A stretch of 37,057 bases of DNA from Candidatus Binatia bacterium (GCA_035631035.1 DASQJL010000118.1:1-37057); one strand, 5' to 3'; numbered from the stretch's first letter, positions 6,501 to 30,998 are shown. A program made the numbers and translations. The notes: a model not told the origin generated them from the sequence alone.

Positions 6501-6715
6501 GCGAGCTGCTCCTCGAGCACGTCGGTGATCTCGGTCTCCACCACGCTGGGGCTCGCGCCGCGGTAGAACGTGGTGATCGAGACGATGGGCGGATCGACGT
6601 CGGGGTACTCGCGCACCGGGAGCCGCGAGAAGGAGATCACCCCGAAGAGGATGATCGCCAGGCTCATGACCGTGGCGAGGACGGGACGCTGGATCGAGAC
6701 TTCGCTGAGCTTCAT
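3569..6715 (-). CDS. RND multidrug efflux permease (HAE1/AcrB family)
   Basis: A 1048-residue inner-membrane proton/drug antiporter of full family length. It begins with the usual MKLSEVSIQRPVLA amphipathic helix and first membrane segment. A periplasmic porter domain (residues about 30-330) follows, then membrane segments with the proton-relay pair D400-D401 in GLVVDDAIVVLENIY. A second porter domain and a second membrane block follow, with lysine K920 in VTKNSILIVEY. The C-terminal tail is rich in Pro, Ala and Glu. The ATG lies two bases after the adaptor stop codon, so the two are surely co-transcribed. With the adaptor and TolC genes upstream it encodes a complete tripartite pump. The drug range cannot be read from sequence. 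All key charged residues are present. Confidence 0.96.
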   Translation of the reverse strand: MKLSEVSIQRPVLATVMSLAIILFGVISFSRLPVREYPDVDPPIVSITTFYRGASPSVVETEITDVLEEQLATLEGVKTIESSSREQGSSISVEFELSRNIEEATNDVRDKVSRVRGQLPAEADDPIVEKVDVNAQPIVWLALSSKRFSNLELSDVADRVLKERLQRLPGVGNIFLGGERRYAMRVWLDPGRMAAHGLTTQDVEAAVRRENAEIPAGRVEGTQREFAVRTRGDLVTAEEFGAIIVKQDGTETVRLDDVADVKVGAEDERTAVRWNGEPAVGLGVVKQSKASTIDVADAVRAALPQLQATLPEGMKLDVAYDSSTFIKDSIHEVSQTIFIAMFLVILVILFFLKTARATLIPAVAIPISIVGTFAVAYFMGFTINILTLLALVLAIGLVVDDAIVVLENIYRHMEMGKGRLRAAFDGSNEIGFAVLATTITLVAVFVPVSFLTGTVGRLFSEFGLSVAVAVLISGFVALTLTPMLSSRILKSSHDKAQGKLAQGIDRFLDAVNVQFSRSLRWFLGHRGVALGAAVLLLALIGGMFMLLPRELVPTEDRGVAFGIVIAPEGSTLEYTDGYMRQVESILLPLPERKGLFTATGLGFGGPGQVTNGFLFLGLKPRAERHKSQQQLVQELFPRLISIPGVLAFVINPPSIGGRFSSSPVEYVLQGEDYEQLAQGVGAMMGEASKLGYLLNLDTDLRLNKPQLDVSIDRERAAQLGVSVTDIGTTLETLLGGRTVSEFKRGTKQYDVIAQVSPQERSTPSTIDDIYIRGNGGLVQLANVVSIKETVAPKELNHYNRVRSATITASLPPGLPLGMALDALDKIAAEKLPAGMKHELAGQSREFRESSTSLYFLFGLAIVFIYLVLAAQFESFIHPLTILLAVPLAVAGALVSLFVFRQSLNIYSQIGLIMLIGLVTKNSILIVEYANQLRARGLSIVDAVAEAAQIRLRPILMTSLATIFGILPIAIGLGAGAEARRPLGIAVVGGMIFSTFLTLVLVPVVYTYLARFTKVPARGSPESAAPEEAPAPAREEEPMPAMATSRTRI

Positions 6716-6717
6716 GG

Positions 6718-7950
6718 TTAGCCTTTCCGGGCCACCGCCGTCTTGCCCGAGGTCGCCTTGCCGGTCGTCGTCTTCCCGGCCGTCGTCTTGCCCGCGGGCG
6801 CGCCGGCCGTCGCCTTGCCGCCGGCCGGACCGCCCGTCGTGTCGGCGCCGGGGGCCGCCGCGCCGCCCGGTGCGCCCGTCGCGCCCGCTCCGCCCGGGGC
6901 CGACTGGATGGGAATGACTTTAGCGCCTTCGAAGAGCTTCTGGTGCCCGGCGCGCACGACGAACATGCCGGGCTCGAGGCCCTTCACCACTTCGACCACG
7001 TCCGCGAGGCGCGTTCCCAGCTGGAGCGAGCTGCGCGTGACCGTGCTGTCCTTCTTCACCACGTAGACGAAGCTCTCGCCGCCCTCGGAGAACACCGCCT
7101 CGTTCGGCACCGTGACCGCCTCGGGGCGCTGGCTCAGCACGGCGCTCACGTTGACCGACATGCCGGGCCGGAAGCGGCCGCCCGGGTTCCTCACGCGGGC
7201 GATCACGCGGCTGCTCCGGGTCTGCGGGTCGAGCACCGGGTCCATGACGTCGATCGCCCCGGTGAGCGCGTAGCCGGGAAACGCCGGCGCCGAGAGCGTG
7301 ACCGGAGCGCCGCGATGAAGGCGCCCCAGGTAGCGTTCCGGCACCGAGAAGGTCACCTTGATCACGCCGATCGCGGCGAGATCGGTGATCGGGGTTCCGG
7401 CGCGCACGTAGGCCCCCGGGCTCACGCGCTTGGGACCCGTGACGCCCGCGAAGGGCGCCCTGATGCGCGTCTTCCGGAGCCGCGTCTCGGCGAGCGAGAG
7501 GTTCGCCTGGGCCACCTTGAGCGCCGCCGCGGCGTCGTCCAGATCCTGGGGCGCGCCGGCGCCCTGCCCCACAACCGCCTTCACGCGCTCGTACGACGCT
7601 TTCGCCTGGTCGCGGAGCGCCTCGGTGCGGGAGACGTCCGCCTTGAGCTGCGCGTCGTCCAGCTGCATGAGGAGCGCACCCGCTCCGACCGGCTGCCCTT
7701 CCACGAACGGGAGCCGCTTCACGACGGCGTCGATCTCCGAGACCACCTGGATCGCCTCGCCCGCCTCCGCCGATCCGACCGCCTCGAAGCGGTCGGCGAC
7801 CGCGCCCTGGGTCACCGGAGCGATCTCGACCGGCATCGGCGGCGGCTTGAATCCCCCGCCCTGCGGGCCCTTCTGGCAGCCGGCGGCAGCCAGGACGAGA
7901 AGCGCGGCAGCGGTCCTGAGCGCGCCCGAATCTACGGAACGTCGGATCAT
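6718..7950 (-). CDS. RND efflux periplasmic adaptor (membrane fusion protein), lipoprotein
   Basis: A 410-residue adaptor linking the inner-membrane pump to TolC. An N-terminal lipoprotein signal ends in LVLAAAGC, with Cys25 the likely lipidated residue. The order is then a barrel-sandwich half (GSAEAGEAIQVVSEI), a helical hairpin with a Q/A-rich heptad pattern (about residues 100-165), the second lipoyl half (TRIRAPFAGVTGPK) and a beta-barrel domain (ITDLAAIGVIKVTFSVPE). A membrane-proximal domain follows (VTVPNEAVFSEGGESFVYVV). The last ~57 residues are an unusual Gly/Ala/Thr/Lys tail with repeated GKTT and GKAT units that is not part of the family fold. The start codon overlaps the TolC stop by 4 bp (ATGA), and GGAAGG precedes it. 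No regulator gene adjoins the operon. Confidence 0.93.
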   Translation of the reverse strand: MIRRSVDSGALRTAAALLVLAAAGCQKGPQGGGFKPPPMPVEIAPVTQGAVADRFEAVGSAEAGEAIQVVSEIDAVVKRLPFVEGQPVGAGALLMQLDDAQLKADVSRTEALRDQAKASYERVKAVVGQGAGAPQDLDDAAAALKVAQANLSLAETRLRKTRIRAPFAGVTGPKRVSPGAYVRAGTPITDLAAIGVIKVTFSVPERYLGRLHRGAPVTLSAPAFPGYALTGAIDVMDPVLDPQTRSSRVIARVRNPGGRFRPGMSVNVSAVLSQRPEAVTVPNEAVFSEGGESFVYVVKKDSTVTRSSLQLGTRLADVVEVVKGLEPGMFVVRAGHQKLFEGAKVIPIQSAPGGAGATGAPGGAAAPGADTTGGPAGGKATAGAPAGKTTAGKTTTGKATSGKTAVARKG

Positions 7951-9638
7951 TCGCTTCCTTCCCCCCGTGGCGTCGCCGGCGGGACTCCGCCGGACGTGAG
8001 ATAACGGAGCTGCGCCGCGGCCCGGGCCGTGCGCACCAGGGCCTGAGAGTAGCGTTGCTGCGCGGCCGCGAGATCGGCCGAGAGGCGCGACAGCTCGAAG
8101 GCGGTCGTCCTCCCGTAGTTGTATTCGAGCACGCCGATGCGCACCTGCTCGATGGACGCGGCCACGCCGCGCCGCGCCGCGTCGAGCCGCGCGGTCGCGT
8201 GCACCAGCTCGCGATGCTGCTCCCGCACGTCGTCAGCCAGCGATTGCTGTCCGGCGACGAGATTCGCCTGGGCGCGGTCGGCCTCGGCCTGCAGCCGGTC
8301 CCGCTCCCCCGCCCCGGCGCGGAAGCCGATCGGCACGGTGAGCGAGGCGCCCGCGCTCCAGTTGGCGAAATCGCGATTTCGCGCCTGGGAGATCGCGTCG
8401 CTCAGGTTGCCGTTGATCGTCGTTCGCAGCGTATCGCCGCCGAAGATCACCTCCTGCGGCGTCCCGGAGAGCCCCGTACCGCCGAGCGTGCCGAAGACGT
8501 CGAGGGCGGGATAGGCGTTCCACTTGGCGCCCTTGTGCCGCGCGCGGGCCGCCGCCACATCGCGCTCACGGGCGCGGAGCTCGGGGTTGTTGCGAAGCGC
8601 GCGCTGGACGAGGTCGGACTCGGGGTCCACCGGGAAGTCGCGGGGCGGCTCGTCGGTCGGACGGAACCGCGCCGCCTCACCGGTCGGGCGGGCGCCGATC
8701 TGCGTCGCGAGCCGGTCCGAAGCCTGGTCCAGCGCCTCCTGGCGATCGAACACCGCCTGCTCCTGCTCCGCCAGGAAGACTTCGGACGTGGCGACCTGCC
8801 CCGGCCCGACGAGGCCGGCGCGGTTCCGAAGCTGCGCCTGGTGCAGGAGGGCCAGGGCCTGATCGCGGATGAGCTGCGCCACGGCGAGGTCGCGCTCGGC
8901 GGCGTACAGCTCCCAGTAGGTCCGTTCGACATTGGCGCGCACCAGCCCCACCGCGTCCTCGTAGCGCGCCTGCGCCGCCTCCAGGTCGCGGCTGGAAGCG
9001 CTCCTCGCGCTGGAGGTGCCCGGGCCGAATCCACGGAGAAGCGGCTGCCGCAGCGAGAGGCGGCCGGTCGCGTCGTACTGCGGGCTCAGCAGCGTGAAGG
9101 GGGCGTTGGTCTCGGTGCGCACCGCATCCAGCGAGGCCGAGAGCTGCGTGCCGAAGGGCAACTTGATGCGCGCGCCGCCGCTCGCCGTCGTCTCCTTCAG
9201 CGACGTTCCGGAGAACACCGACGACGAGGGGGTCTCCTGGTCCACGTGATTCACGTCCGCGAACAGCTCGGGATCGAACGCGCCGCGCTCCCGCCGCGCC
9301 GCGCCGCGCGCCGCCCGAAGCCGGGCGGCCGCGATCCGCACGTCGGTCGAGCCCTGGAGGGCCGCGCCCATGGCTTCGGCCAGCGAGAGCGGCTGTCCCT
9401 GGATTTCGCCCAGCGTGCGGGCCAGGGCGCTGTCGGGATTCGACGCGAGCGGCGAAGGCGCCGGGGGCGGTTGGTCGGTCTCCGCGGCGGGCTGCGCGAT
9501 CGTGGGCGTGGCGGATAGGAACGAGAGAACGACGGCCGCGAGCGCGGCCAAGACCCCGGCGCCGGCGCGCGAACGCCGGCGCGGCCGAGGCGACGCCTCG
9601 GCGGACGCTGCCGATCCTGTGATCAATGAGTCCCCCAC
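7947..9638 (-). CDS. TolC family outer-membrane efflux protein
   Basis: A 563-residue outer-membrane channel subunit. The N-terminus is Arg-rich (RPRRRSRAG) followed by a hydrophobic stretch (VLAALAAVVLSFLSA) and a TIAQPA cleavage region, which I take as a long signal peptide. Two repeats with the TolC pattern follow: ALAQ/EA-like starts such as PLSLAEAMGAAL, long heptad helices and strands such as LSLRQPLLRG and ASLTVPIGF. The drawn start is GTG at 9638; a TTG at 9626 is also possible, and neither has a strong Shine-Dalgarno site. A CCCGAA/TTCGGG inverted repeat lies exactly at the 5' end. It follows the htrA-like gene by 46 bp and overlaps the adaptor gene by 4 bp, so it belongs to the pump operon. 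Confidence 0.9.
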   Translation of the reverse strand: MGDSLITGSAASAEASPRPRRRSRAGAGVLAALAAVVLSFLSATPTIAQPAAETDQPPPAPSPLASNPDSALARTLGEIQGQPLSLAEAMGAALQGSTDVRIAAARLRAARGAARRERGAFDPELFADVNHVDQETPSSSVFSGTSLKETTASGGARIKLPFGTQLSASLDAVRTETNAPFTLLSPQYDATGRLSLRQPLLRGFGPGTSSARSASSRDLEAAQARYEDAVGLVRANVERTYWELYAAERDLAVAQLIRDQALALLHQAQLRNRAGLVGPGQVATSEVFLAEQEQAVFDRQEALDQASDRLATQIGARPTGEAARFRPTDEPPRDFPVDPESDLVQRALRNNPELRARERDVAAARARHKGAKWNAYPALDVFGTLGGTGLSGTPQEVIFGGDTLRTTINGNLSDAISQARNRDFANWSAGASLTVPIGFRAGAGERDRLQAEADRAQANLVAGQQSLADDVREQHRELVHATARLDAARRGVAASIEQVRIGVLEYNYGRTTAFELSRLSADLAAAQQRYSQALVRTARAAAQLRYLTSGGVPPATPRGEGSE

Positions 9639-11795: not shown

Positions 11796-13236
11796 CGGAC
11801 ATCTCGGGGCGGAACACCTTCGCCCCACCGCGCGAAACCGGGACGTCGCCCCGGTCGCTCCAGATTCCCGCGCCGATCCCCGCGAGCAGCGCCGCCCCCA
11901 GCGCGGTGCTCTCGAGCATCGCGGGGCGCGTGATCGGGATCCCCAGGAGATCGGCCTGGGTCTGCATCAGGAGATCGTTCGCGGCGGCGCCGCCGTCCAC
12001 GCGAAGCGCGCGCACGCGGGAGCGCGCGTCCTTCTCCATCGCCGCCACCACGTCGCAGGTCTGGAACGCGATCGATTCCAGCGCGGCCCGGGCCAGGTGC
12101 CCCCGCGTCGTCCCGCGCGTGAGGCCTGACCAGACGCCGCGGGCCTCGGGCCGCCACCAGGGCGCGCCGAGCCCCGCGAACGCGGGCACCAGGACCGTGC
12201 CGCCCGCGTCGGGGACCGACCGGGCGAGGGGCTCCACGTCGGCCGCCGTCGCGATGATCCCGAGGCTGTCGCGCAGCCACTGCACCGCCGCCCCGGCGAT
12301 GAACACCGAGCCCTCGAGGGCGTAGGCCGGCTCGCCGCGCGGCCCGCACGCCGCCGTCGTGAGCAGCCCCGAGCGCGAAGTCGTCGGCACAGCACCGGTG
12401 TGCAGCATGAGGAAGCAGCCGGTGCCGTACGTGTTCTTGATGCCGCCCCGCCGCACGCACCCCTGGCCGAAGAGCGCGGCCTGCTGGTCTCCCGCGATCC
12501 CACGAATGGGAATCCCGTCCGGAAGGCCGGGGACGCCGCGGGTCGCGCCGAAATCGCCGGCCGAGGGGCGCACCTCGGGAAGCATCGCTTCGGGAACGCC
12601 GAAGAGGTCGGCCAGCTCCGGATCCCAGCGGCGGCGCCGGATGTCGTAGAGAAGCGTCCGGCTGGCGTTCGTGGGGTCGGTGGCATGCACGGCGCCGCCG
12701 GTGAGCTTGGCGACCAGCCACGAATCCACGGTGCCGAACGCGACCGCGCCCCGGCGCGCGCGCACGCGCAGTCCGGCGTCGTGCGCCAGGAGCCATTCCA
12801 CCTTGGTCGCGGAGAAATAGGGATCCAGGCGCAGTCCGGTCCGTTTCCGCACCAGAGGCTCGCGGCCCGCGCGGCGGAGCGCCTCGCAGCGCCCGGCGGT
12901 GCGGCGGTCCTGCCACACGATGGCGGGGGCCGCGGGGCGCAGCGACCCCCGCTCCCAGAGCAGCGCCGTCTCGCGCTGGTTCGTGATGCCGATCGCGGCG
13001 ATGCGCTCCGCCCGCGCGCCGCGCAGCGCCGCCCGCAGCGCGCGGAGCGTCGTCTCCCAGATCTCCTCGCCGCGATGCTCCACCCATCCCGGCCGCGGGA
13101 AGTGCTGGGGCAGCTCGGCGTAGCCGCGCGCCGTCACGCGGGCGCGGTCGTCCAGCAGGAGCGCCGTCGTGCCGGTGGTGCCCTGGTCGATGGCGAGGAG
13201 CCGCGCGCCGCGGCTCACGCGCGCGCGACGGCTCAC
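11716..13236 (-). CDS. glpK: glycerol kinase
   Basis: A 506-residue FGGY-family kinase that phosphorylates glycerol to glycerol 3-phosphate. The N-terminal phosphate-binding loop is AIDQGTTGTTALL (D17-T21). Other family marks are GITNQRETALLW, IVWQDRRTAG, the catalytic IAGDQQAALFGQ, the signature NTYGTGCFLMLHTG, and the nucleotide-binding VDGGAAANDLLMQ. The start taken is GTG at 13236, whose GTGA overlaps the glpD stop codon; a GTG six codons later gives 500 residues. The frame remains open far upstream, but that extension is antisense-type noise inside glpD. Its 3' end overlaps the convergent lipase gene by 80 bp. Tight coupling to glpD gives a two-gene operon for glycerol breakdown. Confidence 0.95.
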   Translation of the reverse strand: MSRRARVSRGARLLAIDQGTTGTTALLLDDRARVTARGYAELPQHFPRPGWVEHRGEEIWETTLRALRAALRGARAERIAAIGITNQRETALLWERGSLRPAAPAIVWQDRRTAGRCEALRRAGREPLVRKRTGLRLDPYFSATKVEWLLAHDAGLRVRARRGAVAFGTVDSWLVAKLTGGAVHATDPTNASRTLLYDIRRRRWDPELADLFGVPEAMLPEVRPSAGDFGATRGVPGLPDGIPIRGIAGDQQAALFGQGCVRRGGIKNTYGTGCFLMLHTGAVPTTSRSGLLTTAACGPRGEPAYALEGSVFIAGAAVQWLRDSLGIIATAADVEPLARSVPDAGGTVLVPAFAGLGAPWWRPEARGVWSGLTRGTTRGHLARAALESIAFQTCDVVAAMEKDARSRVRALRVDGGAAANDLLMQTQADLLGIPITRPAMLESTALGAALLAGIGAGIWSDRGDVPVSRGGAKVFRPEMSATERRQKLEVWTRSIRSLLGGSAKRR

Positions 13237-14741
13237 GCGATCCCCCGCGTTCCCCGCTCCGCCTGGCCCGACCCGGCCGCCGCGTCGATGGCGCGCTCCT
13301 CCCGGTCCAGGATCGCGAGCAGCCGCTCCACCTCGGCCGAACGGGTCCGCTCGGACCAGCCCAGCACCGGCGCGGCCCACACCGCGCACGGCACCGCGGC
13401 CTCGCGGAGCGCCCGGGCATCCAGCCAGAGGCGCGTCCGGCGGAGCAGGATGTCGTCCAGGCGGCGCGCCTTCTCCACGCGCGCCGCGTGGGCCACCTCC
13501 GCCTCGGAGATCCGAAACCCGCCCGCGACCTCGGCCGCGCGGGGAAAGTCGCGGCGGAGCCTCTCGATCGATTCCGCGCGGCCGCTCTTGAGCGGAAGCG
13601 ATGCGGTGACGCACGGCGCCACGCGCGCGCCCAGCGCGCGGACGATGCCGTTCACGACGCGCTCGGCGAGCGCGCGATGGGTCGTGTACTTCCCTCCCAC
13701 CATCGTCCAGAGCCCGCGCTCGACGAGCACGCGGCTCTCGCGGCTGTTCTCCCAGGGACGCTCCGCGCGTCCGCGCGCGAGCGGCCGCACCCCGGCGAAG
13801 GCTCGGACCGGCCGCGCGCCGGCGAGCGCGCCGGGAAGCGCCGCGGCCGACTCCTCGAGGAGATAGCGCACGTCCTCGGCGTGCGGCTCCACCGCGCCGG
13901 GATCGGACGCATCGTCCACGTCGGTGGTGCCGGCCAGCGTGTGCGTTCCCCAGGGGATGACGAAGAAGACGCGGCCGTCCCGGCGCGCCGTGAGGAGGAG
14001 CGCCGTCCGGGGAGGGGTCGCCGCGAACACCACGTGCGCGCCGCGGGTGCGGCGCACGCAGGGCGGGGGATGCCCTTCGGCCATGGCGCGCACCTCGTCC
14101 ACCCACGGTCCGCCGGCGTTCACCACCGCGCGCGCCTCGACCTCGGCGTCGGTCCCCGTGATCCGATCGTGGAAGTGCGCGCGCCAGGATCGCCCGTCGG
14201 CGGTCGTGGCGAGCGCGATCGCCTCGGTGTGGGTCCGGATCGTCGCGCCCGCCCGCTCGGCGTCCACGGCCAGCGCGACGCAGAGCGCGGCGTCGTCCAT
14301 CTGCGCGTCGGCGAAGAGCGATCCCCCGCGGAGATCGGCCGGATCGAGTCCGGGAGCGAGCCGGAGCGCTTCCTCCGCCGCGACCCCGCTCCGCTCCGCG
14401 GCGCCGCCCGCGAGGAGGCGGTAGAGCGCGAGGCCGGCGCCCACCCACCAGCGCGCGCGGCCGCGGCCGGCATAGTGCGGAAGGAGGAACGGGAGCGGCC
14501 GCACGAACTCGGGAGCGGTGTGGAGCAGGATGGCGCGCTCGCGAAGCGCCTCGCGGACCAGGCGGATCTGGCCGTTCTCGAGATAACGAAGGCCGCCGTG
14601 GATCAGCTTCGAGGTGCGGCTGCTGGTCGCCGAGGCGAGATCGCCCTTTTCGAGGAGCAGCGTCTCGAGTCCGCGGCGCGCCGCGTCGCGCGCGACGGCG
14701 ACGCCGTGGATCCCTCCGCCGATCACGAGGATGTCGACCAC
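13233..14741 (-). CDS. glpD: FAD-dependent glycerol-3-phosphate dehydrogenase
   Basis: A 502-residue flavoenzyme that oxidises glycerol 3-phosphate to dihydroxyacetone phosphate and passes electrons to quinone at the inner membrane. The FAD loop is DILVIGGGIHGVAVARDAA at residues 3-21, followed by LLLEKGDLASATSSRTSKLI and HGGLRYLE, both highly conserved in GlpD/GlpA. Later motifs include NAGGPWVDEV, PWGTHTLAGTTD and MVGGKYTTHRALAE. The C-terminal helical domain is present. The start is the GTG at 14741: GGGGGAGG seven bases upstream is a clear ribosome site, so a GTG six codons further upstream, which would swallow this site, is not the start. The stop overlaps glpK. A TACACT -10-like box lies 40 bases upstream. 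Confidence 0.95.
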   Translation of the reverse strand: MVDILVIGGGIHGVAVARDAARRGLETLLLEKGDLASATSSRTSKLIHGGLRYLENGQIRLVREALRERAILLHTAPEFVRPLPFLLPHYAGRGRARWWVGAGLALYRLLAGGAAERSGVAAEEALRLAPGLDPADLRGGSLFADAQMDDAALCVALAVDAERAGATIRTHTEAIALATTADGRSWRAHFHDRITGTDAEVEARAVVNAGGPWVDEVRAMAEGHPPPCVRRTRGAHVVFAATPPRTALLLTARRDGRVFFVIPWGTHTLAGTTDVDDASDPGAVEPHAEDVRYLLEESAAALPGALAGARPVRAFAGVRPLARGRAERPWENSRESRVLVERGLWTMVGGKYTTHRALAERVVNGIVRALGARVAPCVTASLPLKSGRAESIERLRRDFPRAAEVAGGFRISEAEVAHAARVEKARRLDDILLRRTRLWLDARALREAAVPCAVWAAPVLGWSERTRSAEVERLLAILDREERAIDAAAGSGQAERGTRGIA

Positions 14742-24788: not shown

Positions 24789-24809
24789 GCGGCGCGCTTC
24801 GCGCGCCGC
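24789..24809. repeat. inverted repeat adjacent to promoter of Hsp20 module 1
   Basis: GCGGCGCGC, a TTC centre and GCGCGCCGC form a perfect 9-bp inverted repeat. Its 7-bp core ends ten bases before the GG of the -24 box, the same distance as a different repeat in module 2. Confidence 0.55.
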
Positions 24810-24816
24810 AATTAGA

Positions 24817-24832
24817 GGGCACACCTCTTGCA
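24817..24832 (+). promoter_or_regulatory. sigma-54-type (-24/-12) promoter of Hsp20 module 1
   Basis: GGGCACACCTCTTGCA has GG and GC ten bases apart, GGCAC at -24 and TTGCA at -12, against the consensus TGGCAC-N5-TTGCW. Expected transcription start is near 24842, 55 bases before the first ATG. The second module has the same element. Confidence 0.65.
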
Positions 24833-24896
24833 GCCAACCGAGCGCACTGCATTCCGCCAATCGAAGACGCGCAGCCCTTCGAACGAAGGAGATCGC

Positions 24897-25097
24897 ATGA
24901 GCACGCCGCGCACGCGGCCGGAAGCGCCGGCCCGAACCGATCCCGGCCCAAGGGAACGCCTGGCCCTCCTCGAACCCGCGGCCGCTGGTTCCCGGAGCGA
25001 CGCCGAGCTGCACCGGGCCATCGAGTCCGCCGCGACGCGGCTCCTGGGCCTTGCTCTGGCGCGAAGCGCCGAGGAGCGGGACCCCGACGAAGAATGA
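24897..25097 (+). CDS. small helical protein, first gene of Hsp20 module 1
   Basis: A 66-residue protein of unknown family. The first ~30 residues are Pro/Arg-rich and probably disordered. The rest forms one amphipathic helix (DAELHRAIESAATRLLGLAL) and an acidic end (EERDPDEE). The start at 24897 is set by AAGGAGA six bases upstream. Its partner at 29475-29648 shares the pattern AEL-x3-IE-x4-RL-x2-L-x-L and an acidic tail at the same place in the second module, so it is a real gene in spite of its size. It lies 16 bp before hsp20. It may bind the chaperone or the third protein as a small adaptor; that is inference. Confidence 0.65.
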   Translation: MSTPRTRPEAPARTDPGPRERLALLEPAAAGSRSDAELHRAIESAATRLLGLALARSAEERDPDEE

Positions 25098-25113
25098 AGC
25101 GAAGGAGGTACTC

Positions 25114-25653
25114 ATGACGAACGAGACCCAGACCATCGACGGCGCCATCGAGCAGGTGGAGCGGCTCTACGAGTCGGTCACCGGCCGCGAAGCGCCCACG
25201 CTGGAAGAGAAACCCTACGCGATCATTCCGCCCGAAAAGGTGCCCGAGGAGCACGTTCAGGAGCAGGTGGACCGCCTGATCCAGACGCTCGCGCAGTTCT
25301 CGGGCAAATCCGAGGCCGAACCGGAATGGAAGCCTCCGATCGCGCTCTGGGAGGGTCGCAACGAAGTTCGGATCGTGGTCGATCTCCCGGGAGTGGAGCG
25401 GGACGCGGTGCGCGTGGCAGTCAGCCGCGGCATGCTCGAGCTCACCGGGACCCGGCTGTTGCGCCCTGCCGAGGACGATTCGATCAAGCTCCGCTACGCG
25501 GAGCACCCGTACGGCAAGTTCCGCCGGACGATGCCCCTGCCTCACGGCGCCAAGGTCGAGCAGCTGAAGGCCGAGATGAGGTCCGGGGTGCTGGAGCTTC
25601 GCATCCCGAGGGAAGCCGAGATCGTCGAGATCAAGACCGTGACCGTCGGCTGA
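25114..25653 (+). CDS. hsp20: Hsp20/alpha-crystallin small heat-shock protein with distinct N-terminal region (copy 1)
   Basis: A 179-residue ATP-independent chaperone. The alpha-crystallin domain is residues about 73-166, with VVDLPGVERDAVRV, HPYGKFRRTMPLP and the family signature A-x4-GVLELRIP (AEMRSGVLEL). The C-terminal tail has VTV in place of the usual I-x-I assembly motif. Residues 10-58 are not the usual variable sHsp arm. They read as a defined region with IEQVERLYESVTG and PPEKVPEEHVQEQVDRL, nearly identical in the second copy. GAAGGAGG lies before the ATG at 25114. Second gene of the module, driven by the -24/-12 promoter. It should hold unfolding proteins, probably in the cytoplasm under stress; the N-terminal region may recruit the partner proteins. 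Confidence 0.92.
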   Translation: MTNETQTIDGAIEQVERLYESVTGREAPTLEEKPYAIIPPEKVPEEHVQEQVDRLIQTLAQFSGKSEAEPEWKPPIALWEGRNEVRIVVDLPGVERDAVRVAVSRGMLELTGTRLLRPAEDDSIKLRYAEHPYGKFRRTMPLPHGAKVEQLKAEMRSGVLELRIPREAEIVEIKTVTVG

Positions 25654-25665
25654 ACGGAGCAGGTC

Positions 25666-26271
25666 ATGACCCGTCATCCCAGAAAACGAACACCACCGCC
25701 ACGGAAGGCCGCCGACCCGGCACCACGGGCCCCTGGCGGCGCACGCAAGGAGGAATCCATGGAAGCAAAGGTCGATGTCCGGAAGCTCCAGATTCTCAAT
25801 GACCGGATCAATCAGACGATCGACGCCCTGAGCCAAGTCCGTCTCTCGGTCCATGGCCTCGGGCACACGGGGGTTCCCACGCCGATGTTCCATCCGTTCA
25901 GCGCCTACACCCAGGGATTGGGAGTGCCGACGATTCCGAACTTCCCGGGCATCCCCTCGTTCCCGCCGGTTTCGCCGTACAGCATGATTCCGCCGGTTCC
26001 GGGCCCGATCGGGCTGTCGCACACGCCGTTCAACCCGCTCGTGAACCCGCTCTTCAACCTTCCGACGCCCTACACCACCCCGTTCGTCAACCCGATGATC
26101 CCGCCGGTTCCGACCCCGGGCATCACGCCGAACTGGGCTCCGACGCCGTGGACGGGCTTCGGCGGCGGGCTGTTCCACACGCCGATCGATCCCATCGAGC
26201 TGAAGCTGATGGAAATGAGGGCTCTCGATCCGATCCGGATCCGGGAGACCTTCCCGTTCGTCATCTACTAG
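25666..26271 (+). CDS. uncharacterised protein with conserved ends and Pro/Asn/Phe-rich core (module 1, third gene)
   Basis: A protein of 201 residues from ATG 25666, or 170 from the internal ATG at 25759. The extension (residues 1-31) is Arg/Lys/Pro-rich. The next ~37 residues, beginning MEAKVDVRKLQILNDRINQ, form a helix nearly identical to that of copy 2. The middle (~95 residues) is low complexity with many Pro, Asn, Phe, Thr and Met and repeated IPPVP and NPL units. The final ~36 residues, GGGLFHTP to TFPFVIY, are again conserved with copy 2. No signal peptide, membrane helix or known domain is seen. Both starts have ribosome sites, so two forms may be made. It lies 12 bp after hsp20 and ends before a strong terminator. 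I do not recognise the family. Confidence 0.75.
   Translation: MTRHPRKRTPPPRKAADPAPRAPGGARKEESMEAKVDVRKLQILNDRINQTIDALSQVRLSVHGLGHTGVPTPMFHPFSAYTQGLGVPTIPNFPGIPSFPPVSPYSMIPPVPGPIGLSHTPFNPLVNPLFNLPTPYTTPFVNPMIPPVPTPGITPNWAPTPWTGFGGGLFHTPIDPIELKLMEMRALDPIRIRETFPFVIY
25747..25759 (+). promoter_or_regulatory. internal ribosome binding site in the third gene of module 1
   Basis: AAGGAGG stands five bases before the in-frame ATG at 25759, a better site than the one for the upstream ATG at 25666. The matching place in module 2 also has a site and an ATG. Confidence 0.6.
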
Positions 26272-26316
26272 GAGGGGCTTGAAGAACCAAGGCTTGGGCC
26301 GGGCCGGTGCGGCCAA

Positions 26317-26350
26317 GGGGGCGGGCGCTCAGCGTCCGCCCCCTCTTTTT
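26317..26350 (+). terminator. rho-independent terminator of Hsp20 module 1
   Basis: GGGGGCGG pairs with CCGCCCCC and, past a G-T pair, CGCT pairs with AGCG around a one-base loop, followed by TCTTTTT. It lies 45 bases after the stop codon and before the end of the convergent protease gene. Confidence 0.85.
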
Positions 26351-26382
26351 GTGACGGGAGCAGCGCGACGGCCGGCGTGCGC

Positions 26383-28326
26383 CTAGAGAAGCTCGACCTC
26401 GCCGAGCACGATGCGCACCGCCTCGTCGAGGTCGGAGGCGTAGCGGACGATCTCGGCCTGGATCGTGAGCGGAACGAGGCTGCTGCGCTCGAGAATCGGC
26501 CGGTTTCCGGTGGGCACGACGATCATCGCGAGGTTGCGGTGGTAGGCCGCGTTCACCTTCTGCTCGACGTCCCCCACCGTGCGCACGGTGAGCACGTCGT
26601 GCGCGTCGGTGACCAGGACGCCGGTGAGCGCCACGTCCTGCCGGATCGGGCGCTGCAGGAATTGCGACAGGAAGGCGAGCGCGGTGGGAAGCCCCGCGGA
26701 GGTGCCGCCCGAGGGCTCGTCCTCCTTCGTCACCTTGTAGCCGTAGTGGTAATCCATGATGTCGCGCGTCAGGTGCGGGAACATCGACTGGGCGTATTCC
26801 CGGACCGCGATGAACGTGTTCCGCACGCTGTCGCGCATCTCGGGCGTGAGGTTGCCCAGGATATCGTCCCGCTGCAGCGAGCCGCCCCGTCCCGGAGACG
26901 CCATCTCCCGCGTGGCCCAGATCTCGTGGATCAGGCCGTGCACCGTGCCCGCGAAGCGATACGTCGCCGCCGAGAGCACCCGTCCGATCGCCTGGCTCCG
27001 CTCGCGCGCGGTGCGCTCGAGCGCCGCCGCGCGATCCGCGAACTGCTTCTGCTGGTCGGCGCCGCGGTTCATGAGCCCGAAGAGGACGGAGAGCTGTCTC
27101 CAGAGCCGGTAGTCCACGGGGCTGTCGTGCACCGCCCGCTCCAGCGCCTGGAGCGATTCGGCGAGCACGGCCGGCTCCTGGAACACGGCCGCGATCGCCT
27201 TCGAGGGCGTGGCCGCCTGCCGCTCGAGGAGCCACGCGATCACGTTCAGATCCGCGGGGTCGGCGCGCAGCACCTTGACGTAGCCCTCGACCGCCCGGTC
27301 GGCGCGTCCGTTTCCGTTCTCCAGCGCCTCGAGGTCGGCGAGGTACTTGAGATCGAGCACCTCCGGCGCGACCGAAAACCCGCGCCGCGCCTCGACCGCG
27401 TCGCCGCGGATGGCGTGCGCGATCGCGGTCTCGCGCCGCGAGGCGTCCGGCGGAGCGTCCATGGACGGCACGTGGACCTGGCGGAGCCGCTCGATCGGGA
27501 GGAAGCGGCGCGAGGCCACGGCGAGCAGGTCGTCGAACCCGGCGCGGTGCATCATCCGGCGATAGGCGGTCAGGTGGCGCTGCTCGTACTCGGCGGCGGC
27601 TTCCGACTCGCCGAGACGATGATGGAGCATGGCGAGGCGGCCGAGGACGACGGTGCCGTCGGCCCCGTTCAGGAGATAGCGGCAGATGTTCACGGCCGCC
27701 TCCAGGCTCGGGCGCGTGCCGATCTTCTCGTACAGCGCGACCAGCGCCATCAGGCGGTCGATATCGGTCTCGAAGCCGCGCTCCAGCCCGAGCCGCTCGA
27801 GGATCTCGCAGGCCTGCTGCAGCTGTCCGGTGAGCTCGTGGATCCACGATTCCGCGAGCACCGCCAGCTTGTAGACCGAGGTGTCGGTGTCCTTGTGGCG
27901 CGCCGCGACGCGCCGGCAGGTCGCCTCCGCCTCGGTGGGGTGGCGGTTCACGAACTGGCGGAACGCCTCTTCGAGGGCCAGGTAGGCGGTGGGCTTCTTC
28001 ACGAGCTGGAATTGGCCGAGGGCGAGGAACTCCCCCGCGCCGTGCACGGGGTCCTGGGCCATGTGGAGCATCGATTCGAGGTGCATGCGCCCCTGCTCGC
28101 CCGAGATGGACCTCCGGGACTGGAGCTGGGCGGAGCAGGCGACGGCCAGCGAGAGCTGGCCGCGCATGTGCTTGATCTTCGTGAAGAGGCTCAGCGCCTC
28201 GAGATGCTCGGGGGTCTCCTCGAGGATCTCGGCGACCTCGAGCTCGGCGCGCTGCAGCTCGCGCATCTCGACCAGGACCTTCGCGTAGCGAAGGCGGTCT
28301 TGCGTGACGAACGTGGCCAGTTCCAC
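26383..28326 (-). CDS. TPR-repeat protein with C-terminal Lon-type (S16) protease domain, no ATPase
   Basis: A 647-residue protein. Residues 1 to about 400 are helical repeats of TPR type (YAKVLVEMRELQRAELEVAEIL, EHLEALSLFTKIK and more). The last ~190 residues match the Lon proteolytic domain. The catalytic serine is S543 in GGTSAGLPTALAFL and the lysine K590 in VGDVEQKVNAA, followed by IVVPTGN as in Lon. There is no Walker A or B motif, so the usual AAA+ unfoldase is missing and the TPR part may select substrates. It starts with GTG at 28326, with TAGAAT exactly six bases upstream. It lies between the two Hsp20 modules on the opposite strand. It would be a cytoplasmic protease for already unfolded or chaperone-held protein. 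Confidence 0.82.
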   Translation of the reverse strand: MELATFVTQDRLRYAKVLVEMRELQRAELEVAEILEETPEHLEALSLFTKIKHMRGQLSLAVACSAQLQSRRSISGEQGRMHLESMLHMAQDPVHGAGEFLALGQFQLVKKPTAYLALEEAFRQFVNRHPTEAEATCRRVAARHKDTDTSVYKLAVLAESWIHELTGQLQQACEILERLGLERGFETDIDRLMALVALYEKIGTRPSLEAAVNICRYLLNGADGTVVLGRLAMLHHRLGESEAAAEYEQRHLTAYRRMMHRAGFDDLLAVASRRFLPIERLRQVHVPSMDAPPDASRRETAIAHAIRGDAVEARRGFSVAPEVLDLKYLADLEALENGNGRADRAVEGYVKVLRADPADLNVIAWLLERQAATPSKAIAAVFQEPAVLAESLQALERAVHDSPVDYRLWRQLSVLFGLMNRGADQQKQFADRAAALERTARERSQAIGRVLSAATYRFAGTVHGLIHEIWATREMASPGRGGSLQRDDILGNLTPEMRDSVRNTFIAVREYAQSMFPHLTRDIMDYHYGYKVTKEDEPSGGTSAGLPTALAFLSQFLQRPIRQDVALTGVLVTDAHDVLTVRTVGDVEQKVNAAYHRNLAMIVVPTGNRPILERSSLVPLTIQAEIVRYASDLDEAVRIVLGEVELL

Positions 28327-28332
28327 GGCCTG

Positions 28333-28338
28333 ATTCTA
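28333..28338 (-). promoter_or_regulatory. -10 element TAGAAT, leaderless geometry, for the Lon-like gene
   Basis: TAGAAT on the minus strand (5 of 6 to TATAAT) is followed by six bases and the GTG at 28326. A GGAG overlaps the region 5' of the box and is too distant to act as a ribosome site. Confidence 0.45.
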
Positions 28339-28372
28339 CTCCAAGCGGCGCCGCGCGCCAGCGAGGGCTTCG

Positions 28373-28900
28373 CTACGTGCCGGAGCCCCCGGGCGCCGGC
28401 GTGCCCACGGGCATGCCCTTGTGCCGCGCCAGGAAATCCTCGATGAAGAGAAGCCCCTGCTCTCCGGCGCGCCGCACCATGCTGAGGAGCATGTCCATGC
28501 TCGAGACCTCCTCGAGCTGCTCGGCGACGAACCACTGGAGGAAGTTCCGCGACGTGTGGTCGTTCTCGGCGATCGCGAGATCCACGAGGCCGTTGATCTG
28601 CTTGGTCACCGTGACCTCCCAGTCCAGGGAGAGCTGCACGGCCTCCTGGGCGTTCGCGAACGAGGGACGCGGCGCGGCGATCGCCGGAATGGCCACCGAG
28701 CCGCCGGCGTCGACCACGTAGCTCACGATCTTGAGGGCATGGACCTTCTCTTCTTCGGCCTGCCGGTAGAAGTGTTTCGATAGTTCGGGAAGATTTTCCC
28801 TTCCGAAGTGCGACGCGATCTGCACGTACTGGAGAAAGGCCCCGAATTCGTTTCCGATCTGAGTATTCAGCGCGGCGACCATCTTCTGGCTGATGAGCAT
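28373..28900 (-). CDS. ftn: ferritin (non-heme, FtnA-like)
   Basis: A 175-residue iron-storage protein forming a 24-subunit shell in the cytoplasm. The ferroxidase ligands fall one residue after the E. coli FtnA numbering: E18 in GNEFGAF, E51 and H54 in EEEKVHA, E95 in DWEVTV, with Q128 and E131 in AEQLEEV. The four-helix pattern and the fifth helix (RRAGEQGLLFIEDFLARH) are complete. A short Gly/Pro end follows. GGGAG stands six bases before the ATG at 28900. The gene is upstream of the Lon-like gene on the same strand (46-bp gap) and divergent from Hsp20 module 2. Iron storage here fits a role against oxidative stress. The promoter is unclear; see the TTGACA box upstream. Confidence 0.94.
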   Translation of the reverse strand: MLISQKMVAALNTQIGNEFGAFLQYVQIASHFGRENLPELSKHFYRQAEEEKVHALKIVSYVVDAGGSVAIPAIAAPRPSFANAQEAVQLSLDWEVTVTKQINGLVDLAIAENDHTSRNFLQWFVAEQLEEVSSMDMLLSMVRRAGEQGLLFIEDFLARHKGMPVGTPAPGGSGT

Positions 28901-29010
28901 CGTGTCTCCCGGGAGCTGCCGGCGGCGCTCCGCATTTCTACGAGGTTCGTCCGTACCGGCACGATGGGAAGGCCAAGGGACCGGATACTTGTGCCGCAGT
29001 GGCGCGATGT

Positions 29011-29032
29011 TGTCAAGCGGGCGGAAGCCCGC
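29011..29032 (-). promoter_or_regulatory. TTGACA box joined to a perfect inverted repeat, upstream of ferritin
   Basis: On the minus strand GCGGGC-TTCC-GCCCGC is followed directly by TTGACA. The -10 region 17 bases on (CACAAG) is poor, so an activator at the repeat is possible. The whole gap 28901-29474 contains no gene besides its promoters. Confidence 0.35.
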
Positions 29033-29241
29033 GCATCGCGACATGGCGATCCGCAACGTACACGGTTTCACCTTTCGGTGTGCAAAAGTGTGCGCGTCGC
29101 CGCGCGCGGGAACGAGCCATGTCGTGTCGACCGCGATCACCGCCATCGCGCAACGCGCGTGCGCGCTCTTTCGAGAATGCGCGACAATTCCTTGCTCACG
29201 CTTCGTTTTCCCGCCGAAACCGGATTCATCGACCGGTGTTT

Positions 29242-29294
29242 CTCCGAGCGTCGGAGCGGACGTCGTCTCGGGGGACGACGCCGCACACGGCGTC
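29242..29294. repeat. three stacked inverted repeats upstream of Hsp20 module 2 promoter
   Basis: CTCCGA-gcg-TCGGAG (29242-29256), CGTCGTC-N6-GACGACG (29261-29280) and GACGCCG-caca-CGGCGTC (29277-29294). The last ends ten bases before the GG of the -24 box, exactly as the repeat in module 1 does. The second and third share bases, so they are alternative structures or overlapping sites. Confidence 0.55.
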
Positions 29295-29303
29295 GCGTGT
29301 TGA

Positions 29304-29319
29304 GGGCATACGACTTGCA
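29304..29319 (+). promoter_or_regulatory. sigma-54-type (-24/-12) promoter of Hsp20 module 2
   Basis: GGGCATACGACTTGCA has GG and GC ten bases apart and a full TTGCA at -12; the -24 box is GGCAT in place of GGCAC. Start expected near 29329, giving a leader of about 146 bases. Confidence 0.62.
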
Positions 29320-29474
29320 CGTTTTTTCATCCGCAGTTCCGAATGACAAACGACGTTGTGGGACGCTTCGCGGATCGGAATGAATTCTGTCACCTGTCCG
29401 TGAAGCCGACGCAGGCGCACACCACCGTGCGCCGGACGCCCCGGGCATCGAGCCCGGGAGGAAGTGAGCGCATC

Positions 29475-29648
29475 ATGTCGCCGACGCGAATCCCGAATTC
29501 CGATCTCGACGACCTCCCTGCCGATCCCCGTGAGGCCGAGCTGGAGATGATCATCGAGGCCAGCACGCTGCGCCTGCAGAGCCTGGTCCTGGTCCAGGCT
29601 TCCTTTGAGGACGAATCCGAGATCGCGTATGCGGAGGAGGAAGCATGA
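29475..29648 (+). CDS. small helical acidic protein, first gene of Hsp20 module 2
   Basis: A 57-residue protein of unknown family, partner of the gene at 24897. After an acidic N-terminal stretch comes one helix (EAELEMIIEASTLRLQSLVL) and a strongly acidic end (EDESEIAYAEEEA). The shared positions with the module 1 protein are A, E, L, I, E, R, L and two further Leu at identical spacing. A start at 29475 corresponds to the paralogue's start. GGAGG is rather far (13 bases) and GTGAG nearer. An in-frame ATG at 29343 would add 44 residues with no counterpart in copy 1. The stop overlaps hsp20 by 4 bp (ATGA), so translation is coupled. Confidence 0.62.
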   Translation: MSPTRIPNSDLDDLPADPREAELEMIIEASTLRLQSLVLVQASFEDESEIAYAEEEA

Positions 29649-30181
29649 GCGAGACCGAGAGCATCGACACCACCATCGAACAGGTCGAACGGCTCTACCG
29701 GTCGGTGACCGGGCAGCAGGCACCGCCGGTCGGAGAGCAGCCGTACGCCACGATCCCCCCTGAGAAGGTTCCCGAAGAGCACATCCAGGAGCAGGTGGAC
29801 CGCCTGGTCGAGACGCTCGCCGCGTTTTCCATGGGCGGGCGCGTTGAAACCGAATGGAAGCCGCCGATCACGTTATGGGAGGCCAAGGAAGAGCTGGTGA
29901 TCGCCGTCGATCTGCCGGGCATGACCCGCGAACGGGTGCATGTCACGGTGGACCGCGGCCTTCTCCAGATCCATGGAGAGCGCCCGCTCCGCGAGACCAA
30001 GGACGGCGACGGGCGGAACCTCAAGTACGTGGAACACCCCTACGGTCGTTTCCGCAGGGTCATCCCGCTTCCGCACGCCGCCCGCGTGGATCAGCTCCAG
30101 GCGAATCTGCGCGACGGCGTCCTCGAGATCCGGATCCCGAAGCGGGAGTCAGCCGAAGCGCGAACCATACCCATCGCCTAG
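29645..30181 (+). CDS. hsp20: Hsp20/alpha-crystallin small heat-shock protein with distinct N-terminal region (copy 2)
   Basis: A 178-residue paralogue of the protein at 25114-25653, alike along its whole length. The shared N-terminal region has IEQVERLYRSVTG and IPPEKVPEEHIQEQVDRL. The alpha-crystallin domain (about residues 72-165) carries VDLPGMTRERVHV, HPYGRFRRVIPLP and ANLRDGVLEIRIP. This copy ends with a true I-P-I motif (ARTIPIA), which in sHsps docks into a neighbouring domain to build oligomers; copy 1 has VTV. The ATG overlaps the stop of the small first gene. The difference in the C-terminal motif suggests the copies may assemble differently or form mixed oligomers. Confidence 0.93.
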   Translation: MSETESIDTTIEQVERLYRSVTGQQAPPVGEQPYATIPPEKVPEEHIQEQVDRLVETLAAFSMGGRVETEWKPPITLWEAKEELVIAVDLPGMTRERVHVTVDRGLLQIHGERPLRETKDGDGRNLKYVEHPYGRFRRVIPLPHAARVDQLQANLRDGVLEIRIPKRESAEARTIPIA

Positions 30182-30191
30182 CGGAGGCCTC

Positions 30192-30887
30192 ATGCCGCCG
30201 CGACGTTCCAAGAGCTCTTCCGAGTCGTCACGGAAGACGAAATCGACCAGCGAGCCGGAAGAGCGGCCCGCTGTCCACGAGGAGAGACCCATGGAAGCGA
30301 AAGTCGACGTTCGCAAGCTGCAGGTTCTCAACGACCGGATCAACCAGACCATCGACGCCCTGAACCAGGTGCGTCTCTCGGTGCACGGACTTGGGCATAC
30401 CGGAGGGCTGCAATCCCCCTTCAACCCGTACGCGACGCAGGGCTACGGGATGCAGCAGGGATACGGGATGCAGCAGCCCTACGGCATCGGTGCGCCGGGA
30501 TTCGGGCTTCAGCAGGGCATGCAGGGTGGATTCCCCGGCATCACGCCCCAAATCCCGTTCGGATTCCAGCACAGCCCCTTCCAGCAGTTCGGCAACCCCT
30601 ACGTCGGCCAGGGCTCGCCGTGGGGCCAGGTCGGATCGCCCTGGAGCGTCCTCGGCCAGTCGAGCCCCGTGGGCTTCGGCGGTGGGGGCGGTTTCGGCGG
30701 ATCGGGCGGCTTCGGCGGCATCGGCGGTTTCGGGGGCGGGATCGGCGGCGGCCTGAGCCAGCTCTACGGCGGCATGGGCGGCGGCCTCTTTCACACCCCG
30801 CCCGATCTGATCGAGCGGCAGCTGGTCGAGGCCCGTGCCAACGACCCCTTTCGGATCACCCAGACCTTCCCCTTCGTCGTCTCCTGA
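30192..30887 (+). CDS. uncharacterised protein with conserved ends and Gly/Gln/Phe/Tyr-rich core (module 2, third gene)
   Basis: A protein of 231 residues from ATG 30192 (GGAGG before it), or 198 from the internal ATG at 30291. A Ser/Lys/Glu-rich extension (1-33) is followed by the helix MEAKVDVRKLQVLNDRINQ and LSVHGLGHTGG shared with copy 1. The middle has repeated GYGMQQ units, then QF-, GSPW- and GFGG-type repeats: a prion-like, Gly/Gln/aromatic low-complexity region. The last ~36 residues (GGGLFHTPPD to TFPFVVS) match copy 1. It follows hsp20 by 10 bp. Composition of this sort often gives reversible phase separation in other proteins; whether it does so here is inference. No family is recognised. 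Confidence 0.75.
   Translation: MPPRRSKSSSESSRKTKSTSEPEERPAVHEERPMEAKVDVRKLQVLNDRINQTIDALNQVRLSVHGLGHTGGLQSPFNPYATQGYGMQQGYGMQQPYGIGAPGFGLQQGMQGGFPGITPQIPFGFQHSPFQQFGNPYVGQGSPWGQVGSPWSVLGQSSPVGFGGGGGFGGSGGFGGIGGFGGGIGGGLSQLYGGMGGGLFHTPPDLIERQLVEARANDPFRITQTFPFVVS
30279..30291 (+). promoter_or_regulatory. internal ribosome binding site in the third gene of module 2
   Basis: GAGGAG stands six bases before the in-frame ATG at 30291, mirroring the internal start of module 1. Confidence 0.5.
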
Positions 30888-30967
30888 GCGGAGGCCCGCG
30901 CCCCCCGAAGGGGCGAAGCGGCCCTCCACGGAGACGCCGAAGTAACCGGCAGGTCTGAAGTTACCCC

Positions 30968-30998
30968 GCGGGGCAGGCGCTTGGAGCGCCTGCCCCGC
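30968..30998 (+). terminator. perfect 13-bp hairpin after Hsp20 module 2
   Basis: GCGGGGCAGGCGC, a TTGGA loop and GCGCCTGCCCCGC. It lies 80 bases after the stop codon; no T tract follows, so termination may need another factor. A weaker CGCCCC/GGGGCG hairpin lies close to the stop codon. Confidence 0.55.

What the first reader, a model, noticed from the sequence alone, without database searches (positions are those of the whole stretch)
24789..30998. A three-gene Hsp20 module present twice: candidate undescribed stress system
The order small helical acidic protein, Hsp20, low-complexity protein occurs at 24897-26271 and again at 29475-30887, same strand, each with a similar promoter layout. 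All three proteins of one copy resemble their counterparts in the other. The first and third proteins match no family I know, yet both are kept in both copies, so they are likely to work with the chaperone. The copies are well diverged outside short conserved blocks, which suggests an old duplication under selection rather than a recent one.
Basis: partly seen in the sequence, partly recalled or inferred. Interest (0 to 1): 0.9.

Follow-up and report, generated by a model that had tools for sequence, protein, structure and literature searches.

The report
Chaperone, disordered linker, ATPase-less Lon protease
Two copies of a small heat-shock chaperone gene and a gene for a mostly unstructured partner protein flank a protease gene; the same three genes travel together in bacteria of at least two phyla, which points to a previously undescribed protein clean-up system that may need no ATP.

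Summary
The duplication is real. Hsp20s are 58% identical; the third proteins share a 38-residue N-terminal block, a C-terminal block and a low-complexity middle. The small first proteins are barely alike and are not part of the conserved system. Hsp20, third protein and TPR-Lon occur in exactly the same 3 of 47 genomes of the phylum (Candidatus Eisenbacteria) and recur side by side in Myxococcota and a further phylum-level group. They form a dedicated Hsp20 clade and a protein family with no Pfam match. The third protein carries about three copies of a G-L-x-H-[T/S] motif, absent in the one genome that has Hsp20 and third protein but no TPR-Lon. Upstream of both copies lie sigma-54-like promoters, and the genome encodes RpoN. 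Best reading: a stress-induced relay in which the Hsp20 holds unfolded proteins and the disordered third protein tethers them to an ATP-independent Lon-type peptidase. The three-gene association is well shown; the mechanism is inferred (about 0.4).

The parts
24817..24832 (+). sigma-54-like promoter element of copy 1, GGGCACACCTCTTGCA
   Evidence: 20.0 of 21.7, p=0.0055 against random windows of the same sequence; rpoN in genome
24897..25097 (+). small ORF of copy 1 (66 aa); lineage-specific, doubtful component
   Evidence: Shine-Dalgarno present but weak codon signal; not picked by the codon-based gene caller
25114..25653 (+). Hsp20 copy 1 (179 aa), module-specific small heat-shock protein
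   Evidence: Pfam HSP20 8.7e-15; dedicated clade 96/98
25666..26271 (+). third protein copy 1: N-terminal helix block, disordered P-rich middle, GL[GSF]HT x3, C-terminal block. Likely start 25759 (AGGAGG SD); in-frame start at 25666 adds a basic extension
26383..28326 (-). TPR-Lon: alpha-solenoid (residues 1-444) fused to S16 Lon proteolytic domain (445-647), dyad S543/K590, no AAA+/Walker A
   Evidence: Pfam Lon_C 4.6e-10; AlphaFold pLDDT 86.8; Foldseek TMt up to 0.85 to human Lon proteolytic domain; dyad invariant
28373..28900 (-). ferritin, 47 bp upstream of TPR-Lon on the same strand (probable co-transcription); also next to the module in G005; not part of the module outside this family
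   Evidence: Pfam Ferritin 2.7e-34; synteny
29304..29319 (+). sigma-54-like promoter element of copy 2, GGGCATACGACTTGCA
   Evidence: 19.0 of 21.7, p=0.0125
29475..29648 (+). small ORF of copy 2 (57 aa), overlapping the Hsp20 start by 4 bp; lineage-specific
29645..30181 (+). Hsp20 copy 2 (178 aa)
   Evidence: Pfam HSP20 3.3e-17; 58% identical to copy 1
30192..30887 (+). third protein copy 2: N-terminal helix (residues 40-65), G/Q-rich disordered middle, GLGHT/GFQHS/GLFHT, C-terminal helices. Likely start 30291

Best explanation
A stress-induced three-protein quality-control system. The Hsp20 (dedicated clade) holds unfolded proteins. The third protein is an intrinsically disordered adaptor: its conserved N-terminal helix binds the Hsp20 assembly, and its evenly spaced GLxH[T/S] motifs dock the TPR solenoid of TPR-Lon. 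This brings Hsp20-held, already unfolded polypeptides to a Lon-type Ser-Lys peptidase that has no AAA+ motor, so disposal needs no ATP. In this family transcription of the chaperone/adaptor copies is probably driven by RpoN (sigma-54). SHOWN here: the genes and their homology, co-occurrence and adjacency across lineages, domain make-up, catalytic dyad, lack of Walker A, motif repetition, duplication. INFERRED: which part binds which, ATP independence, substrate hand-over, stress induction, sigma-54 control.
For: Co-occurrence: this Hsp20 type, third protein and TPR-Lon lie in the same 3 of 47 Eisenbacteria genomes (hypergeometric 6e-5 per pair). In 379 Myxococcota genomes 8 have TPR-Lon and 7 of those have Hsp20 and third protein adjacent; the third-protein profile hits 6 of the 7 TPR-Lon genomes shared with that draw, plus G062. 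In the phylum of G063, G063 itself (locus L035), G601 and G602 repeat the trio. Pairwise identities of the three proteins correlate at 0.87-0.94. The third protein has GLxH[T/S] at 13.4 per 1000 aa against 0.07 in 224 control proteins, usually three copies; AlphaFold shows only an N-terminal helix and C-terminal helices, the middle below pLDDT 50. Reciprocal exceptions: G062/L034 has Hsp20 and third protein, no TPR-Lon in the genome, and no motif; G073/L050 has TPR-Lon and a four-motif LC protein, but no Hsp20 within about 8 kb and no recognisable N-terminal helix block. TPR-Lon: solenoid plus Lon peptidase, no Walker A, S543 and K590 invariant in the 10 aligned proteins. The described AAA-defective Lon type, MtaLonC, degrades unfolded proteins without ATP (PMC3391209).
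Against: No physical interaction was tested. The motif/TPR-Lon link rests on one exception in each direction. The systems sampled belong to few lineages, so co-inheritance inflates correlations. Sigma-54 sites are clear only in the Eisenbacteria copies W1, W2, G005 and in L032 (p 0.006-0.02), marginal in L033 and L035, and not seen in G040, L034, L049, L051-L054 and L066. No expression data. In the window TPR-Lon is on the opposite strand and probably follows ferritin, so it need not be co-regulated with Hsp20.
Confidence: 0.4

Rival explanations
1. The third protein is a stress-assembled scaffold (condensate or filament) that the Hsp20 keeps soluble, and GLxHT is a recognition or cleavage tag by which TPR-Lon removes it after stress: the third protein is the substrate, not the adaptor.
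For: Low-complexity G/Q/P/aromatic-rich middle with few charged residues; the motifs go missing where TPR-Lon is missing. E. coli Lon degrades excess sHsps (PMC8155344) and a Lon activator can itself be a Lon substrate (LarA, PMC10665427), so adaptor and substrate roles can coexist.
Against: The three-copy, roughly 50-residue spacing and the 38-residue near-invariant N-terminal block suggest docking surfaces rather than only a degron. No direct test.
Confidence: 0.25
2. The third protein is a structural (envelope, coat or surface) protein; Hsp20 is its export or assembly chaperone and TPR-Lon its processing enzyme.
For: Gly/Pro/aromatic-rich low-complexity composition; Myxococcota include developmental bacteria (general knowledge).
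Against: The third proteins start with a short helix, not an evident signal peptide (by eye, no predictor run); Lon peptidases and Hsp20s are normally cytoplasmic.
Confidence: 0.12
3. One reading: small acidic protein, Hsp20 and low-complexity protein are a self-standing three-gene stress system.
For: Same order in both copies; a small ORF sits between the sigma-54 site and Hsp20 in both window copies and in G005.
Against: W1-W2 similarity weak, W2-G005 p=0.26, unrelated ORF in G040, not seen at the other loci; TPR-Lon is the conserved third partner.
Confidence: 0.05
4. TPR-Lon is a regulatory protease (for example removing a repressor or anti-activator of the stress response) and is merely linked to Hsp20 and third protein.
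For: NtrC-type sigma-54 activators or response regulators lie near the module in L032, L033 and L050 (by eye).
Against: No conserved regulator across all loci; the third protein and TPR-Lon are linked by co-occurrence and by the motif exceptions.
Confidence: 0.1

Closest known systems
LonC / MtaLonC, Lon-like protease without ATP-powered unfolding (PMC3391209)
   Same: S16 proteolytic domain with Ser-Lys dyad fused to a large N-terminal region without canonical AAA+ motifs; expected to act on unfolded proteins without ATP
   Different: N-terminal half is modelled here as a TPR-like all-helical solenoid, not a degenerate AAA-like domain; standing genomic partners Hsp20 and third protein; I recognise no LonC structure among the sequence hits
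LonA (ATP-dependent protease La)
   Same: Proteolytic domain fold (TMt up to 0.85) and catalytic dyad
   Different: No LON N-domain, no AAA+ module, no Walker A
IbpA/IbpB small heat-shock proteins and Lon in E. coli
   Same: Small heat-shock proteins functionally tied to Lon (excess IbpAB degraded by Lon, PMC8155344); ibpB also transcribed by sigma-54 (PMC4370416)
   Different: No genomic module, no adaptor protein, ATP-dependent LonA
LarA, heat-shock activator of Lon (PMC10665427)
   Same: Stress protein that engages Lon through a short motif
   Different: Five-residue C-terminal degron acting on LonA; here internal repeated GLxHT motifs; LarA was not aligned with the third protein

Membership tests
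Small heat-shock protein (Hsp20 / alpha-crystallin) | alpha-crystallin domain | tested here: met
   Pfam PF00011 E 8.7e-15 and 3.3e-17, above cut-off; sHsp structures match the profile
Small heat-shock protein (Hsp20 / alpha-crystallin) | C-terminal I-x-I/V motif | tested here: met
   VTV, IPI, VPV, IHV at the C-termini in the alignment; read by eye
Small heat-shock protein (Hsp20 / alpha-crystallin) | oligomeric holdase activity | not testable with these tools
   needs protein biochemistry
Lon (S16) peptidase family | Lon proteolytic domain with Ser-Lys dyad | tested here: met
   Pfam Lon_C 39.8 bits, cut-off 21.1; S543 and K590 invariant in 10 aligned proteins
LonA / LonB (ATP-dependent) | AAA+ module with Walker A | tested here: not met
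   no AAA match, no Walker A in 13 members, no strands in the model before residue 449; NCBIfam Lon models far below cut-off
LonC (Lon-like, non-functional AAA-like domain) | AAA-like (degenerate) domain N-terminal to the protease | tested here: not met
   model shows an all-helical solenoid 1-444; no direct superposition with MtaLonC was made
LonC (Lon-like, non-functional AAA-like domain) | ATP-independent degradation of unfolded proteins | not testable with these tools
   needs enzymology
Known anti-phage defence systems | match to PADLOC models | tested here: not met
   no hit for TPR-Lon, Hsp20, third protein or small protein
sigma-54-dependent operon | -24/-12 element with RpoN in the genome | tested here: inconclusive
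   elements in W1, W2, G005 and L032 at p 0.006-0.02, not in several other loci; rpoN present

The most novel reading that the evidence does not exclude
A chaperone-to-protease relay that works without ATP: a dedicated Hsp20, a disordered adaptor with repeated GLxHT docking motifs, and an AAA+-free TPR-Lon peptidase, inherited as a unit in Eisenbacteria, Myxococcota and a further phylum-level group.
Probability: 0.35. Interest if true: 0.82.

Novelty: new variant of a known kind. Interest (0 to 1): 0.7.

Why it matters
Small heat-shock proteins are usually thought to hand clients to ATP-driven Hsp70/Hsp100 machines. A conserved genetic unit that joins an sHsp to a Lon-type peptidase without a motor, through a disordered protein with a repeated short motif, would be a new route for removing damaged protein, suited to energy-starved cells. 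It gives a defined motif and three expressible proteins, so the hypothesis is directly testable. It also adds a Lon architecture (solenoid plus peptidase) that is not in the 2008 survey of Lon domain arrangements (PMC2605481).

Tried and rejected
Viral contigs: no encoded relative of the third protein. Plasmids: no TPR-Lon. PADLOC: nothing. PDB and Pfam for the third protein: nothing credible. TPR-Lon in 338 genomes outside the phylum, drawn as relatives: none, so the system is rare. The Hsp20 tree does not resolve whether the duplication came before or after the split from G005. Gas-vesicle GvpH was considered because of a weak HMM hit (E 0.044) and rejected: below cut-off, no gvp genes noticed around. 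Literature searches for a Hsp20/Lon-like/TPR system returned nothing relevant, but the library holds open-licence papers only.

Full report
OBSERVATION. The window is contig C118 of a 3.35 Mb draft genome, 97% complete. Both copies are real. Hsp20s are 58% identical. The third proteins share a nearly invariant 38-residue N-terminal block and a C-terminal block around a variable low-complexity middle. The first small proteins do not align by BLASTP; one helical segment gives p=0.0045 against shuffles. All six genes have good Shine-Dalgarno sequences. No family model covers the first or third proteins.

In the genome, the third protein exists only as these two copies. In the phylum it is found in 3 of 47 genomes: this one, G005 (same family) and G040 (another family). 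A scan of 84,980 species gave five loci, four of them labelled Myxococcales or Deltaproteobacteria. In three of these four the order on one strand is Hsp20, third protein, then a 640-660 aa protein with an N-terminal TPR-like part and a C-terminal Lon protease domain (L033 has one extra small ORF before it). The window encodes this protein between the two copies, at 26383-28326 minus. A profile of it finds exactly the same three Eisenbacteria genomes, 8 of 379 Myxococcota, 5 of 195 genomes in the phylum of G063, and none among 338 other genomes drawn as relatives. Of the 8 Myxococcota, 7 have Hsp20 and third protein next to it. In the G063 group, G063 itself (L035), G601 and G602 have all three; in G601 the Hsp20 reading frame is broken, perhaps by a sequencing error; G542 and G448 lie at contig ends and cannot be judged. 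The reverse search with the third-protein profile in Myxococcota gave 7 hits, 6 of them in the TPR-Lon set.

ANATOMY. TPR-Lon: AlphaFold model with mean pLDDT 86.8, helices only up to residue 444, then the Lon proteolytic domain, TM-score up to 0.85 (target-normalised) to human Lon proteolytic domain. Catalytic Ser543 and Lys590 are invariant in 10 proteins; no Walker A in 13. Sequence matches to solved Lon proteins cover only the protease part. Third protein: AlphaFold gives helix 40-65 and helices 206-225, nearly everything between below 50. It contains G-[LF]-x-H-[TS] about three times at roughly 50-residue spacing, where 0.01-0.02 is expected from composition; 13.4 per 1000 aa against 0.07 in 224 neighbouring proteins. 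Hsp20: module members form one clade (96/98) apart from the other Hsp20s taken from this genome and its relatives, and end in an IxI/V-type motif.

TWO EXCEPTIONS THAT INFORM. G062 (L034) has Hsp20 and a third protein with an intact N-terminal block, no TPR-Lon in the genome, and no GLxHT motif at all. G073 (L050) has TPR-Lon and a 544 aa low-complexity protein with four motifs, but no Hsp20 within the 17 kb examined and no recognisable N-terminal block. One case each way, but they fit a two-ended adaptor: helix to Hsp20, motifs to TPR-Lon. The whole genome of G073 was not searched for Hsp20.

DUPLICATION. G005 has the order M16 peptidase, ferritin(-), module(+), TPR-Lon(-) (reversed). The window has M16, module, TPR-Lon(-), ferritin(-), module. 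Tandem duplication of [ferritin, module, TPR-Lon] followed by loss of the first ferritin and the last TPR-Lon gives the window order. Flanking orthologues are mostly 61-73% identical (extremes 48% and 95%), while both Hsp20 copies are about 59% identical to that of G005 and 58% to each other, so the duplication is about as old as the split, and the tree does not resolve it. Copy 2's third protein is Q/G-rich like that of G005, copy 1's is P-rich.

REGULATION. Both copies have a sigma-54-like element (24817-24832 and 29304-29319), as do G005 and L032; the signal is marginal in L033 and L035 and absent in G040, L034, L049, L051-L054 and L066. rpoN is encoded. E. coli ibpB is also reported to be sigma-54 transcribed (PMC4370416). 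In the window TPR-Lon follows ferritin by 47 bp, probably as one transcript.

MECHANISM. Best reading: Hsp20 holds unfolded protein, the third protein tethers Hsp20 assemblies to TPR-Lon, and the motor-less peptidase digests what is already unfolded. MtaLonC sets the precedent that a Lon peptidase without a working AAA+ part degrades unfolded but not folded proteins without ATP (PMC3391209). The main rival is that the third protein is TPR-Lon's substrate rather than its adaptor. Shown: genes, linkage, domains, motif, dyad. Inferred: binding, ATP independence, hand-over, induction.

NOVELTY. Parts belong to known superfamilies, but the third protein family, the TPR-Lon architecture (not listed among Lon_C architectures in PMC2605481) and the trio were not found in any library or paper searched here. 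I call it a new variant of a known kind (chaperone-adaptor-protease systems). Limits: mostly draft genomes, few lineages, open-access literature only, no interaction data.

Noticed in passing
G000:C60, L022:8364 and L022:15191: Two further Hsp20-like proteins in the same genome, about 7 kb apart, each with a long charged or low-complexity N-terminal extension (for example ...WPYAGPLSATGYRPPTYMGYPGYMSY).
   Followed up: no
L032:730-1094: Between Hsp20 and the third protein lies an Ala/Ser-rich ORF ending in a partial copy of the third protein's N-terminal block (MRKLQLLNDRLCQAMDALEWV); the whole-genome search scored it at 3.9e-6.
   Followed up: partly
L065:6438-7859: In G601 the Hsp20 reading frame is broken by a frameshift next to an otherwise intact TPR-Lon; sequencing error or decay not decided.
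   Followed up: no
25666-25758 and 30192-30290: An in-frame, Arg/Lys-rich upstream extension of the third protein stays open in both copies and in G005 and G040; possible alternative start.
   Followed up: partly
L032:3983-4999, L033:5161-6522 and 12761-14137, L050:6102-7262: NtrC-type sigma-54 activator or response-regulator genes near the module (identified by eye).
   Followed up: no
3569-9551: RND-type efflux set by eye (pump, periplasmic fusion protein, outer-membrane factor) on the minus strand.
   Followed up: no
L033:7073-7225: A short Hsp20-like C-terminal fragment lies upstream of the module in L033.
   Followed up: no
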